DNA of 64,000 bases from Anaerolineae bacterium (lineage in GTDB: Bacteria; Chloroflexota; Anaerolineae; B4-G1; DUEL01). Position 1 is the stretch's first letter. Each line of letters starts with the position of its first letter. The stretch is taken from NCBI GenBank assembly GCA_016931695.1, contig JAFGEI010000023.1, positions 69,328-133,327 of the forward strand, read 5' to 3'. Both the position numbers and the translations under genes were made by a program. Shown here piece after piece: positions 850 to 48,090 of the stretch. The notes under the pieces are model-generated. The model was not told the origin of the DNA. It ran no database searches and worked only from the letters and a program-made list of their open reading frames with translations.

Positions 850-3800
850 ATGCTACGCCAGGTTCGGAACTCGACTGTTTTGTTGATCCTGTTGCTCGCC
901 CTGCTCTTTGGCAGCGCCTTTTCCCTGTCCGCCCAGGAGCCGGGCGTCGCGGCCAAGATCGACCCGCACTTGATGCAAGCGCTCGTGACGGAAGGCGCGT
1001 CCGACCTGATCGTGCGCTTTGCCGCGCAGGCCGACCTTTCCCCCGCCTACTCCATGGACTGGGAGGCCCGCGGCCGCTTTGTCTACCAGGCCCTGCAGCG
1101 GACCGCCGACCAGGCCCAGGCCCGCGCCCGCGCCCTGCTCGACGCGGACGGGCTGGCCCACGCCACTTTTGTCGCCGGCAACGAGCTCTACGTCTGGGCC
1201 GGCGACCTGGAGGCGGCGAGGGCGCTGGCCGCCCTGCCGGAGGTCGACACTATCCGCGCGCCGCGCACGTTTGCCATCGCGCCCGTCGTACAAGGCCCCA
1301 CGCTGCCAGCGCCCGACACCCTGGCCTGGGGCATTGTCGACGCCGGCGCCGACCAGTTTTGGGCCCAGTTCGGCTTCAAGGGCGAGGGCACGGTCGTCGC
1401 CAACATCGACACCGGGGTGGAATGGACCCACGACGCCCTGGTCGGCACCTACCGCTGCGCTGACGACCCGGGCAATCCGATCTGCTGGGAGGACCCTTCC
1501 GACATCTGCGGCGGTGAGCCGTGCGACAACAACGGGCACGGCACGCATACGATGGGCACCATCACCGCCTCCGACGACCCCTCCCTCACCTGGCAGGCGG
1601 GAATGGCGCCCAACTCGCTCTGGATCGCCTGCAAGGGCTGCGAGTCGAGCTTCTGCTCCGAGTTTGCCCTCAACGCCTGCGCCGACTGGGTGCTGGCTCC
1701 GGGCGGCGACCCGCTCTACCGCCCCCACGTGGTCAACAATTCCTGGGGCGGTGCGGGGTGCGACACCTGGTACCAGGCCAAGGTGCAGGCCTGGCAGGCA
1801 GCGGGCATCTTTCCCACCTTTAGCGCTGGCGGCGGCGGCTCTGGTTGTGCAACCCTCGGTTCGCCCGGCGACTACCAAGAGTCCTTTGACGTCGTGGCGC
1901 ACGATTCCAATCGTTGGATTGGTTCCTTTTCCTCCCGCGGCCCCTCCTGCTTTGGCCACGATCCCTACACCAAGCCCAACATCTCTGCCCCCGGGGTGCA
2001 GATCTGCTCGACGGTGCCGGGCAACGGCTGGAACTGCGGTTACAGCGGCACCTCGATGTCGGCGCCCCACGCCGCCGGGGCGGCGGCGCTGCTCTGGTCG
2101 TGCAACCCCGGCCTCGTTGGCCAGGTCTATGCCACTTTCGAGGCGTTGCAAAATACGGCCGATGCCCCGCCGGAAGGTAACTGCGGCGCCCCCCCCGACG
2201 GCGAGGGAAATTACACCTACGGCTACGGCTATCTCAACGTCCTCGCCGCCGGCCAGGTCTACTGCGGCATCGCCCAGTTCGGCTACCTGGACGGCTATGT
2301 CTACGATCTGGACGACGATCTGGCGGTGCCCTGTACCGACGCCGTGGTGCGCGTCGAGCCCGGCAGCCTCGACGTCCCCGTCGACGCCAACGGCTATTAC
2401 TGGGCCCAGCTCATCACGGGCACCTACGAGGTCACGGCGACGGCCCCCGGCTACTCGGTCGACGGTCCGTACGTGATCGAGATCGTGGATAATATGACCA
2501 CCACGCAGGACTTTTTTTTCACCCGGCCCTTCATCGCGGTCACGCCAGGCGAATTTATCTCGGTCGAGGTGCCGGTCGGCGACCCGGTGACCTATACCAT
2601 GACCATCAGCAACTGGGGCGGCCTGCCGCTCGACTTTGAGATCGTGGAGCTGACCGGCACACTCCAGCCGCTGGTCATCGGGCCCACCGCCTATGGCATC
2701 GATCCTTTCATCGACCAGGAGCTCGCGGCCTCGGCCGACGGCAGGGCCGACGTGTTCATCGCCTTTGGCGGTTCCGTCGACCTGACCCCGGCGACGGCGA
2801 TGGACGACCCGGCCCGCGGCCAGTGGGTCTATGACACCCTGCTGGCCCGCGCCGACGCCACCCAGGCCCGCGTGCGCGGCTGGCTGCAGGCGCGCAGCAT
2901 CGACTACCGGGTGATGCTGGTCAACAATTCGATCTTTGCCCGCCTGAGCGCCGGTGAGATGGACGAACTACTCGCCTTGCCCGAGGTCGTCGGCTTCCGC
3001 GGCAACCACGTCTACCACGTCGATCCCATCGTCGCGGACACGGTCGAGCCGGACAGCGGCGTCAACGCCCTCGCCTGGGGGATCGAGCAGGTTGGCGCCA
3101 ACCTGGTCTGGCAGGATTTCGGCGTCCGCGGCCAGGGCACGATCGTGGCCAACATCGACACCGGCGTCGAGTGGGACCACGACGCCCTGATCGGCACCTA
3201 CGGCTGTCCCGGCGACCCCGGCAACAACGCCTGCTGGGAGGACCCCTCCAACATCTGCGGCGGCACGCCCTGCGATAACAACGGGCACGGCACGCACACC
3301 ATGGGCACCATGACCGCCTTCGATGACCCCGGCTTCACCTGGCAAGCCGGCATGGCGCCGGACTCGACGTGGATCGCCTGCAAGGGCTGCGAGTCGAGCT
3401 CCTGCTCCGAGTACGCACTGACCGCTTGCGGCGACTGGGCCCTGGCCCCCGGCGGCGACCCGGCCAACCGCCCGCACGTGATCAACAACTCCTGGGGCGG
3501 CGGCTCCTGCAACACCTGGTACCTGCCCTACGTGCTGGCCTGGCGCGCGTCGGGCATCTTTCCCGCCTTTGCGCCCGGCGGCGGCGGCCCGGGCTGCGGC
3601 ACGGTCGGCAGCCCCGGCGACTATCCCGAGTCCTTTGCTACCGGCGCCACGGACCAGAACGACGTCGTGGGCTCCTTTTCCAGCCGCGGCCCCTCCTGCT
3701 GGGATGGAATCAAGCCTGACGTGACCGCGCCGGGCATCAACATCTGTTCTACCGTGCCCGGCAACGGCTGGAGCTGCGGCTACAGCGGCACCTCGACGTC

Positions 3801-5154
3801 GAGCCCGCACAGCGCCGGCCTGGCCGCGCTGGTGATGAGCGCCAACCCGGCCCTGGCCCGCGACGTCCCGGCCGTCGAACAGATCGTCAAGGACACCGCC
3901 CTCTGCATCGAAGACCTGCAGTGCGGCGGCGAGCCCTGCCCCGGCTGCAACAACGTCTATGGCTGTGGCCGCATCGACGCCTATGCCGCGGTCGAAGCGG
4001 CCCTGGGGCCCACCGGCCTGCCGTGGACCTGGCAGGTGCCCGTCAGCGGCACGATCGATCCGTACGACCATTGGAACGTCGACGTTGCCTTCTGGTGCAG
4101 CGCCACCGGCGAGCTGAGCGGCACGCTCGAAATCCGGCACAACGATCCCTGCCAGGAACCGCTCCACCTTCCGTTGCTCGTTCACTGCGCGGGGCCGGAC
4201 GAGGTGGATTGGGAGTGGCTAAAGTGGGTCTGGATCGACGGCGCCGGCCCCTACGACCCCTCCATGAGCCCCTTCGTGGTCGAACCGGGCGCCGTCGTCG
4301 AGATTGCCGACCAGGTCTGGGTCAGTTCCACCAGTCTCATCACCTTCACCCTCAGCGAGATGTGGGGCGACTCGCTGGAGTTGATCGGCTACGAAGTGAC
4401 CGCCGGCACGGTCACGACCGGCGCCACCTGGCTCGACTGGTACGGCGTCGACCTGTCCAGCGGCTGGTACGCCCTCACCAAGACCTTTGGGGTCGCGGAC
4501 GTGCCGTGGTGGTACACGGACGTCGTCAGCGAGTATCTCTGGATCGAGGATACTTTCCCGCAGCCCGATCCGGTCTATCTCGAGTTCGAGCACCCGTGTG
4601 AGGAGATCACCGACATCGCCATCGCCGGCCCGACCAGCGGCTTTACCGGCACCGTCTACACTTTCGACACCAATTACCTGCCGCCGACGGCGACCCTGCC
4701 GGTCGACTACCTGTGGGACGACGGCGGAACGGCGGACTATTCGACGCGCACCTGGGCGCTGCCCGGCATCTACACCCTGACCGTCGAGGCCTTTAACTGC
4801 GCGGCGGGCTGGGCCTCTTCCTTCCACGTCATCGAGATCGCCCCGCTCTCGGACTGCACGCCGGTCTCGGGCACCGCCTTTGTCTACGAGCCGGCGATGC
4901 CGTACGCGGGCGACCCGGTAACCTTTACCGCCAGCGTGGTCGAGGGCGACGCGCCGACGTTCAGCTGGGATTTTGGCGACGGCTTGGGCGGCGTGGGGAT
5001 AACCGTCACGCACGTTTTTACGCCTGCCGGTGCCTACACCGTCACCCTGACGGCGGAGAACGCATGCGGCACCGAGCGCGTGTCGGACGTCATCGCGGTC
5101 AGCAAGTACGGAGCGGTGCGCACCGTCTACCTGCCGCTGATCCGGCGGGAATAG
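850..5154 (+). CDS. Secreted S8 (subtilisin-like) serine peptidase with two tandem prodomain+catalytic modules and PKD-like repeats; C-terminal VYLPLIRRE tail
   Basis: Signal peptide; two full sets of catalytic motifs: NIDTGVEW/NNGHGTH/NNSWGG/GTSMSAPH and NIDTGVEW/NNGHGTH/NNSWGG/GTSTSSPH; PKD motif SWDFGDG. Confidence 0.93.
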   Translation: MLRQVRNSTVLLILLLALLFGSAFSLSAQEPGVAAKIDPHLMQALVTEGASDLIVRFAAQADLSPAYSMDWEARGRFVYQALQRTADQAQARARALLDADGLAHATFVAGNELYVWAGDLEAARALAALPEVDTIRAPRTFAIAPVVQGPTLPAPDTLAWGIVDAGADQFWAQFGFKGEGTVVANIDTGVEWTHDALVGTYRCADDPGNPICWEDPSDICGGEPCDNNGHGTHTMGTITASDDPSLTWQAGMAPNSLWIACKGCESSFCSEFALNACADWVLAPGGDPLYRPHVVNNSWGGAGCDTWYQAKVQAWQAAGIFPTFSAGGGGSGCATLGSPGDYQESFDVVAHDSNRWIGSFSSRGPSCFGHDPYTKPNISAPGVQICSTVPGNGWNCGYSGTSMSAPHAAGAAALLWSCNPGLVGQVYATFEALQNTADAPPEGNCGAPPDGEGNYTYGYGYLNVLAAGQVYCGIAQFGYLDGYVYDLDDDLAVPCTDAVVRVEPGSLDVPVDANGYYWAQLITGTYEVTATAPGYSVDGPYVIEIVDNMTTTQDFFFTRPFIAVTPGEFISVEVPVGDPVTYTMTISNWGGLPLDFEIVELTGTLQPLVIGPTAYGIDPFIDQELAASADGRADVFIAFGGSVDLTPATAMDDPARGQWVYDTLLARADATQARVRGWLQARSIDYRVMLVNNSIFARLSAGEMDELLALPEVVGFRGNHVYHVDPIVADTVEPDSGVNALAWGIEQVGANLVWQDFGVRGQGTIVANIDTGVEWDHDALIGTYGCPGDPGNNACWEDPSNICGGTPCDNNGHGTHTMGTMTAFDDPGFTWQAGMAPDSTWIACKGCESSSCSEYALTACGDWALAPGGDPANRPHVINNSWGGGSCNTWYLPYVLAWRASGIFPAFAPGGGGPGCGTVGSPGDYPESFATGATDQNDVVGSFSSRGPSCWDGIKPDVTAPGINICSTVPGNGWSCGYSGTSTSSPHSAGLAALVMSANPALARDVPAVEQIVKDTALCIEDLQCGGEPCPGCNNVYGCGRIDAYAAVEAALGPTGLPWTWQVPVSGTIDPYDHWNVDVAFWCSATGELSGTLEIRHNDPCQEPLHLPLLVHCAGPDEVDWEWLKWVWIDGAGPYDPSMSPFVVEPGAVVEIADQVWVSSTSLITFTLSEMWGDSLELIGYEVTAGTVTTGATWLDWYGVDLSSGWYALTKTFGVADVPWWYTDVVSEYLWIEDTFPQPDPVYLEFEHPCEEITDIAIAGPTSGFTGTVYTFDTNYLPPTATLPVDYLWDDGGTADYSTRTWALPGIYTLTVEAFNCAAGWASSFHVIEIAPLSDCTPVSGTAFVYEPAMPYAGDPVTFTASVVEGDAPTFSWDFGDGLGGVGITVTHVFTPAGAYTVTLTAENACGTERVSDVIAVSKYGAVRTVYLPLIRRE

Positions 5155-14778: not shown

Positions 14779-15771
14779 ATGAAACTGATCGTCCAAATCC
14801 CCTGTTACAACGAAGAAGCGACCTTGCCTGAGACGGTGCGGGACCTTCCCACGGCGATAGCGGGCATCGACGTGATCGAACTGCTGGTGGTGGATGACGG
14901 CAGCAGCGACCGCACAGCCGAGATCGCGCGAGAACTGGGGATCCATCACGTCGTGCGCTTTGCCCACAACCGCGGCCTGGCCTCCGCCTTCCTCGCCGGC
15001 CTGGAGGCGGCGCTGCAGGCCGGCGCCGACATCGTCGTCAATACCGACGCCGACAACCAGTACTGCGGTGGCGACATCCTGCGGCTGGTCGAGCCGATCC
15101 TGGAGGGGCGGGCCGACATCGTCGTCGGCGACCGCGGCGTCATGGCCCTGGAACACTTTTCCCCCTTCAAGCGGCTGCTGCAGCGGCTTGGGAGCTGGGT
15201 CGTGGGGCGGGCCGCCGGCATCCCCATCCCCGACGCCACCAGCGGTTTTCGCGCCTTTACCCGCGAGGCCGCCCTGCGGCTCACCGTGCTCAGCGATTAC
15301 ACCTATACCCTGGAGACGCTGATCCAGGCCGGCGCCCGCCGTATGGCGGTCACTTATGTGCCCGTCCGCACCAACCCCCGCACCCGCAGCTCGCGCCTGA
15401 TCCGCAGCATTCCCTCGTTCATCACCATCTCGGCCGTGACCATCATCCGCTTTTACATCATGTACCGCCCCCTGCGGGTCTTTGCCACCATCGGCGGGCT
15501 GTTTGTTGCCGGTGGGGTGGCGCTGGGCCTGCGCTTTCTCTACTTTTATTGGCTGACCGAAGGGACGGCCGGGCGCATCCAGTCGCTGATCCTGGCGGCG
15601 ATCCTCACCATTGTCGGCTTCCAGGTCTGCCTCATCGGCCTCATCGCCGACCTGGTGCGCATGAACCGCAAGATGCTGGAAGAGATCACGATCCGCGTGC
15701 GCCGGATGGAGCTGGAAGACGGGAATTCGAACACGGATGGTAACTGCTCAGGCTACCTTCCCGAAAGCTGA
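14779..15771 (+). CDS. Glycosyltransferase family 2 (dolichol-phosphate mannosyltransferase-like) with C-terminal TM helices; final residues encoded by a MITE-like insertion
   Basis: [35 protein letters not shown]; stop codon lies inside the repeat beginning at 15740. Confidence 0.9.
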
Positions 15772-15881
15772 AAATCGCCTGCTCAACTCGTCGAAACCTG
15801 TGCCCCGTGCGTTCTGGTGTGAAATGAGCGCCAGTGGAGCTTTCGGGAAGGTACGTTGCGGGTAGGGCTGTGAGCAGTTAC
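15740..15881. mobile_element. MITE-like element A, GTAACTGCTC family (TSD-like CACGGATG/CACGGACG)
   Basis: TIRs gtaactgctcaggctaccttcccgaaagct / agctttcgggaaggtacg...gagcagttac; flanking 8-mers 15732-15739 and 15882-15889 match 7/8. Confidence 0.75.
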
Positions 15882-31232: not shown

Positions 31233-31360
31233 GTAACTGCTCGGGCTGCTCGCTTGGAAGCTCTCCCGCCCAGGAAAAGGGAGAAATGTGGGCGCCGGCA
31301 CCCACGTCCTTGCCCTTTCCGGGCTTGAGGGCCTCCAGGCGCGACCCGACGAGTCGTTAC
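31233..31360. mobile_element. MITE-like element B, GTAACTGCTC family (degenerate TSD GCCTGGTG/GTCTGGCG)
   Basis: TIRs gtaactgctcgggctgctcgcttggaagc / ggcctccaggcgcgacccgacgagtcgttac. Confidence 0.65.
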
Positions 31361-31467: not shown

Positions 31468-31609
31468 GCAACTGCTCGGCCATATGCTCGCGATGTGCTT
31501 TCCCGAAAGCTCCGGCGGTCCCGGTTTGTACCCGGTTGCTCGCTGCAGCGGATTTCGATCTGTCAGGCGAGCACCTTGTAGCTTTCGGGAACGTAGCCTG
31601 AGCAGTGAC
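31468..31609. mobile_element. MITE-like element C, degenerate GTAACTGCTC family member
   Basis: gcaactgctcggcc...ttcccgaaagct / agctttcgggaacgtagcctgagcagtgac; no recognisable TSD. Confidence 0.55.
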
Positions 31610-31666: not shown

Positions 31667-31695
31667 TTGGCTGAGCGGTTACATCATGCTATAAT
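31667..31695 (+). promoter_or_regulatory. Sigma70-type promoter TTGGCT-N17-TATAAT
   Basis: Upstream of the coiled-coil gene; spacer contains a TIR-like gagcggttac. Confidence 0.45.
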
Positions 31696-47607: not shown

Positions 47608-47798
47608 CTCACATTTCACTCGCAGGTGTCATTGCGAGCCGCCGCGGGCGGCAGCCTGCCCCGAGCTTGCCTCGGGGAAGTAATCTCATGAACGCATTTT
47701 GGAGATTGCCCCCGATTTCTCGGGGCCGGGCTTTGGGCGCAGAGTTTATCCTGAGCGCAAGCAAAGGACGCCCGCGCAATGACAAGTGTGAAATTGTC
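47608..47798. repeat. REP/MITE-like element E ('gtcattgcgag...gcgcaatgac')
   Basis: Inverted ends caatctcaca...ggtgtcattgcgag / gcgcaatgacaagtgtgaaattg; internal taatctc/ggagattgc. Confidence 0.55.
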
Positions 47799-47891
47799 GT
47801 AACTGCTCAGGCTGCCCGCCTGGAAGCTCTCCCACATCCTCCCCTTTCCGGACTTGGGAGGGCTTCCAGGGGCAACCGGCTGAGCAGTTAC
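47799..47891. mobile_element. MITE-like element D, GTAACTGCTC family, perfect 8-bp TSD AAATTGTC
   Basis: TIRs gtaactgctcag / ctgagcagttac; aaattgtc at 47791-47798 and 47892-47899. Confidence 0.8.
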
Positions 47892-47917
47892 AAATTGTCA
47901 AGCCACTCAGCTTGCTC

Positions 47918-48014: not shown

Positions 48015-48090
48015 TGAACAGACAGAGCGAGCAGTTACACCGTTGGCCCCTGAATGCGGACAACGGGTTATGGCATGAGGAGCAAAGAAA

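What the first reader, a model, noticed from the sequence alone, without database searches (positions are those of the whole stretch)
47791..47899. GTAACTGCTC MITE family: element D with perfect 8-bp target-site duplication
SEEN: a 93-bp element with TIR GTAACTGCTCAG/CTGAGCAGTTAC, flanked by identical AAATTGTC. Related copies: A (15740-15881, TSD 7/8), B (31233-31360, 6/8), C (31468-31609, none). B and D share internal cctggaagctctccc; A and C share ttcccgaaagct, so at least two subfamilies. None is long enough to encode a transposase. INFERENCE: non-autonomous elements mobilised in trans by a transposase making 8-bp duplications.
Basis: seen in the sequence. Interest (0 to 1): 0.68.

Follow-up and report, generated by a model that had tools for sequence, protein, structure and literature searches.

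The report
IS66-type miniature transposons in an Anaerolineae genome
The 93-bp element is one of roughly a hundred short, gene-less jumping DNA pieces in this Anaerolineae genome; they share their ends with IS66-family insertion sequences found in related bacteria, so they were most likely moved by an IS66 transposase that is no longer visible in this genome.

Summary
Element D (47799-47891) has perfect 12-bp inverted ends (GTAACTGCTCAG) and a perfect 8-bp target-site duplication. The genome carries 97 exact copies of the end motif against 0 for the reversed control. Of 31 convergent end pairs picked without looking at the flanks, 16 have an 8/8 and 10 a 7/8 duplication; no other length gives a signal. 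Relatives lack the element at the D site (tldD-HTH gene pair in G005, G003) and the A site (G009). The transposase family can be named: IS66, single-ORF ISBst12-like group. G085 (same class) carries a 1560-bp IS66 with a 491-aa transposase and GTAACTGCTCAGGC at both ends, in one genome with 21 sampled miniature elements with these ends, 20 with perfect 8-bp duplications. A published, actively transposing IS66 (ISDge4) has one end GTAACTGCTCAGCA and an 8-bp repeat. No IS66 gene was found in the window's own assembly, so the mobiliser here is lost or unassembled, and its role here is inferred. A new member of a known kind (MITEs); the IS66 link and the spread over a class with changing interiors are mildly interesting.

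The parts
47791..47798 (.). left copy of the 8-bp target-site duplication of element D (AAATTGTC)
47799..47891 (.). element D, 93-bp MITE with perfect 12-bp inverted ends; an internal-deletion form of the ~150-bp L066/L076 type
   Evidence: hairpin
47799..47810 (+). left terminal inverted repeat GTAACTGCTCAG
47880..47891 (-). right terminal inverted repeat GTAACTGCTCAG
47892..47899 (.). right copy of the 8-bp target-site duplication of element D (AAATTGTC)
15740..15881 (.). element A, 142 bp, duplication 7/8 (CACGGATG/CACGGACG); inserted in the last codons of a glycosyltransferase gene
31233..31360 (.). element B, 128 bp, decayed right end, duplication 6/8; same type as D, L066 and L076
31468..31609 (.). 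element C, 142 bp, decayed ends, no duplication; shares internal stretches with A
31671..31682 (-). lone end motif GTAACCGCTCAG (one mismatch), no partner found
48027..48038 (-). decayed end motif GTAACTGCTCGC downstream of D

Best explanation
The GTAACTGCTCAG elements are MITEs (non-autonomous DNA transposons) of the IS66 insertion-sequence family. A single-ORF, ISBst12-like IS66 transposase (TnpC) recognises the 12-14-bp ends, cuts out or copies whatever lies between them, and joins it to an 8-bp staggered target cut; repair leaves the 8-bp duplication. Shown here: the family, its ends, its 8-bp duplications, sites without the element in relatives, and IS66 elements with the same ends in the same class, one of them sharing a genome with MITEs. 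Inferred: that an IS66 TnpC moved the copies in this particular genome (no IS66 gene is seen in it), the biochemical steps, and that the hairpin form is a by-product of origin or favours movement. D itself looks like a shortened copy (about 57 bp deleted) of a ~150-bp form, inserted between a tldD/pmbA-like peptidase gene and an HTH regulator gene.
For: 97 exact end motifs (58 + 39) in the genome against 0 for the control. TSD-blind set of 31 pairs: 16 at 8/8, 10 at 7/8, flank identity 0.88 at length 8 against 0.21-0.28 at lengths 4-7 and 9-12. The same in G005 (46 of 60 at 7/8 or better), G085 (20 of 21 at 8/8) and four further genomes (12 of 15 at 7/8 or better). Full-length IS66 L173/L321 in G085: 1560 bp, 491 aa, PF03050 E 4e-43, GTAACTGCTCAGGC at both ends; G313 carries a 1500-bp IS66-type element (487-aa frame, TnpC-relative hit) with GTAACTGCTCAG at both ends. 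In G023 a decayed TnpC C-terminus runs into CTGAGCAGTTAC. Six single-ORF IS66 of the class have perfect 8-bp duplications and variant ends GTAACTACTCAG, GTAACTATACAG, GTAACTACTAAG. A G027 MITE end and the G085 IS66 left end share the 20 bases GTAACTGCTCAGGCATAACC. ISDge4, an IS66 of the ISBst12 group that transposed in the laboratory, has one end GTAACTGCTCAGCA and an 8-bp repeat (PMC12898284). Empty sites: D locus tldD-HTH spacing 15 bp in G005 and 79 bp in G003 without any end motif, against about 507 bp here; A locus in G009 aligns across the junction.
Against: No IS66 transposase or TnpB in the own assembly, nor IS66 transposase in the MITE-rich relatives G005, G033 and G027; across relatives IS66 presence and MITE load do not go together (G032: 13 IS66 matches, no end motif). 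The shared identity with the autonomous element is short (12-14 bp, up to 20 in one case) and the interiors are not derived from IS66. The G085 IS66 copy itself has no duplication (5/8). One search had no positive control.
Confidence: 0.88

Rival explanations
1. The elements are MITEs, but of a different DDE transposase family (still undetected) that happens to make 8-bp duplications and share the GTAA start.
For: IS66 genes are not found in this genome or in the MITE-rich relatives G005, G033 and G027.
Against: IS66 elements of the same class bear exactly these ends, one in the same genome as identical-ended MITEs; ISDge4 has the same 12-mer at one end and 8-bp repeats. Draft assemblies readily lose multicopy IS (general knowledge).
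Confidence: 0.08
2. Convergent hairpins or REP-like repeats spread by recombination or by a REP-associated tyrosine transposase rather than by DDE transposition.
For: Elements are palindromic and most fold strongly; many partial or lone ends exist.
Against: Exact 8-bp duplications in about half to nearly all elements in several genomes, with no signal at any other length, and sites without the element in relatives. A transposase that leaves no duplication would not give this.
Confidence: 0.02
3. The elements have been co-opted as regulatory or transcript-ending hairpins and are kept by selection; mobility is only their past.
For: D lies between two genes; A supplies a new predicted C-terminus and stop codon to a glycosyltransferase gene.
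Against: No element at the syntenic site in relatives, copies decay freely (B, C), and no Rfam family matches the window. Nothing here tests expression.
Confidence: 0.02

Closest known systems
ISDge4 (IS66 family, ISBst12 group, Deinococcus geothermalis; PMC12898284)
   Same: One end GTAACTGCTCAGCA, 8-bp direct repeat on insertion, single transposase ORF; transposition observed.
   Different: Autonomous element with a 449-aa transposase; the present elements are 58-264 bp (most 125-154 bp) and carry no gene. Its other end is GTGACTACTCAGCA.
Full-length IS66 of G085 (L173/L321) and the IS66-type element of G313 (L335), same class
   Same: Same 12-14-bp ends; size and gene layout of ISBst12-like IS66; G085 also holds MITEs with these ends.
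   Different: Autonomous; interior unrelated to the MITE interiors.
Chunjie MITE of Geobacter uraniireducens (described in the review PMC10969869)
   Same: Bacterial MITE family with conserved ends and direct repeats, about 38 full and 57 partial copies, 178-235 bp.
   Different: Different organism; its end sequence could not be compared because the original paper is not held.
MITEPsy1 of Pseudomonas syringae (PMC3189936)
   Same: Short MITE (100 nt), mobility observed, thought to be moved by an IS with near-identical ends.
   Different: ISPsy2-like ends (IS5?) and 4-nt duplications.

Membership tests
MITE (miniature inverted-repeat transposable element) | short, no transposase gene | tested here: met
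   58-264 bp; D is 93 bp
MITE (miniature inverted-repeat transposable element) | terminal inverted repeats | tested here: met
   12/12 in D; 97 exact motifs in the genome against 0 in the control
MITE (miniature inverted-repeat transposable element) | target-site duplication of fixed length | tested here: met
   8 bp only; 26 of 31 at 7/8 or better
MITE (miniature inverted-repeat transposable element) | multiple dispersed copies | tested here: met
MITE (miniature inverted-repeat transposable element) | sites without the element in relatives | tested here: met
   cross-genus only: D locus in G005 and G003, A locus in G009
IS66 family (mobiliser) | ends starting GTAA shared with the autonomous IS | tested here: met
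   GTAACTGCTCAG ends of IS66 in G085, G313 and G023; ISDge4
IS66 family (mobiliser) | 8-bp direct repeat | tested here: met
   six IS66 of the class with perfect 8-bp repeats; 8 bp for ISPpa5a and ISPpa7 in PMC3281130
IS66 family (mobiliser) | DDE_Tnp_IS66 transposase in the same genome | tested here: not met
   none in G000 with PF03050, PF05717 or a TnpC C-terminus query; draft assembly of 236 contigs, so absence is not proven. Met in G085
IS66 family (mobiliser) | movement of the mini-element by the IS66 transposase | not testable with these tools
   needs a transposition assay

The most novel reading that the evidence does not exclude
A single short IS66 end motif acts as a common currency across the class Anaerolineae: unrelated palindromic filler sequences were captured between the same ends independently in different genera and amplified to tens or hundreds of copies, in several genomes outliving the transposase itself. 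If so, IS66 TnpC needs little more than 12-14 bp at each end.
Probability: 0.4. Interest if true: 0.5.

Novelty: new member of a known kind. Interest (0 to 1): 0.35.

Why it matters
It ties an abundant repeat of Anaerolineae genomes to the IS66 family, for which my searches of the held papers showed no described MITE, and gives G085 as a genome where IS and MITEs coexist and can be tested. It also helps explain why such draft genomes are fragmented: 13 contigs of this assembly end inside a copy.

Tried and rejected
IS66 TnpC and TnpB searches of the own genome: none found. C-terminus and full TnpC protein searches of the own genome and MITE-rich relatives: none found (the latter without a positive control). 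Rfam: no match in the window. The L017 253-bp pair and the L340 655-bp pair have matching ends but no duplication and were not counted as single elements. RAYT/REP and plain-hairpin readings were rejected because of the 8-bp duplications. The original Chunjie paper is not held; one look-up in the Cardinium MITE paper failed on a short search term and was not repeated.

Full report
Observation. Element D spans 47799-47891 with perfect GTAACTGCTCAG inverted ends and the 8-bp repeat AAATTGTC on both sides. In the window the motif at up to 2 mismatches occurs 13 times against 2.63 expected. The window's genome, a 3.87-Mb draft of 236 contigs, holds 97 exact motifs, 58 forward and 39 reverse, against 0 for the reversed control, and 190 against 7 at up to one mismatch.

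Transposition signature. From the fetched stretches of the own genome I took, without looking at the flanks, the nearest convergent end pair 50-320 bp apart: 31 elements. Sixteen have an 8/8 and ten a 7/8 direct repeat. Mean flank identity is 0.88 at length 8 and 0.21-0.28 at lengths 4-7 and 9-12. The same holds in G005 (33 of 60 at 8/8, 13 at 7/8), G085 (20 of 21 at 8/8) and G033/G027/G015/G101 (9 of 15 at 8/8, 3 at 7/8). The organism is most likely an Anaerolineae: apart from a single Vibrio match, the only genome with the longer pattern GTAACTGCTCAGGCTGNNCGCC in the named collection is the Anaerolineae MAG Zod_Metabat.614, which from matching contig coordinates appears to be G005, a member of the window's own family (266 motifs); records of the window's own genome may be left out of that collection's answer.

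Empty sites. Element D lies between a TldD/PmbA-like gene and an HTH gene. In G005 and G003 orthologues of the two genes stand 15 and 79 bp apart with no end motif in the interval, against about 507 bp in the window, which also holds a second repeat-like stretch upstream of D. Element A lies in the last codons of a family-2 glycosyltransferase gene and changes its predicted end from ...NTDERG* to ...[13 protein letters not shown]; the G009 orthologue ends ...DADERG* and its DNA aligns straight through the insertion point. These are cross-genus comparisons; an exact within-species empty site was not available.

Subfamilies. The sampled elements form one cluster of 18 (125-154 bp), one of 3 around D (87-94 bp), one of 3 (~152 bp, median identity 96%) and seven singletons. 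D aligns to L066 and L076 with about 57 internal bases missing, 98% identical over 63 bp to L066: a deletion derivative. D and four of the other six folded copies, among them A and C, fold far better than shuffles; the decayed copy B does not clearly. Own-genome copies have a median identity of 84% where they align over most of their length, G085 copies 94%, so the burst in G085 looks younger.

The mobiliser. No IS66 transposase is found in the own genome, although the same queries ring in other genomes. But IS66 elements with exactly these ends exist in the same class. G085:C31:32374-33933 is 1560 bp, encodes a 491-aa protein with PF03050 (E 4e-43), zf-IS66 and DUF6444, and has GTAACTGCTCAGGC at both ends. 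G313:C290 carries a 1500-bp element with a 487-aa frame and the same 12-mer at both ends. In G023 a decayed TnpC C-terminus runs directly into the motif. Other single-ORF IS66 of the class have the variant ends GTAACTACTCAG, GTAACTATACAG and GTAACTACTAAG with perfect 8-bp repeats. G085 also holds MITEs with the motif, and a G027 MITE end shares 20 bases with the G085 IS66 left end. Independently, ISDge4 of the IS66 family, seen to transpose in Deinococcus geothermalis, has one end GTAACTGCTCAGCA and an 8-bp repeat (PMC12898284). A full-text search for the 12-mer found that paper and two that by their titles are unrelated. I conclude that the elements are IS66-type MITEs; that IS66 moved those in this genome is inferred, since the transposase is missing here.

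Limits. Nearly all the genomes compared are drafts, and multicopy IS are commonly lost from such assemblies (general knowledge); 13 own contigs end inside a copy. MITE load and IS66 presence do not go together across relatives, which fits loss of the transposase after a burst but is also what a different mobiliser would give. No function beyond mobility was tested.

Noticed in passing
L061:497-512 (own genome C173): A 16-bp remnant GTACCTGAGCAGTTAC flanked by a perfect 8-bp repeat TGGATTTG, sitting inside what looks like an A/C-type element: a nested insertion reduced to little more than one end.
   Followed up: partly
G085 MITEs, e.g. L316:101-219: The interior is built from stretches like GTCATGCTGAGCGAAGCGAAGC / GTCATTCTGAGGAGCGG, which resemble a separate palindromic repeat seen in many genomes (recalled, not searched); the ends seem to have captured another repeat.
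   Followed up: no
window 47620-47790: Directly upstream of D lies another repeat-like stretch (TCATTGCGAGCCGCC...GCAATGAC), different in sequence from the MITE.
   Followed up: no
L057:164-330 (own genome C169): A lone GTAACTGCTCAG end followed by an AT-rich stretch (CTTTGCATGGGATGGCTCAG...) similar at its start to the right end of the 264-bp element in L011; possibly the end of a longer, different element.
   Followed up: partly
window 1316-3831: Long direct repeats (300 nt at 79%, 121 nt at 75%, spacing about 1745) inside the region of a large ORF, suggesting a tandem domain duplication.
   Followed up: no
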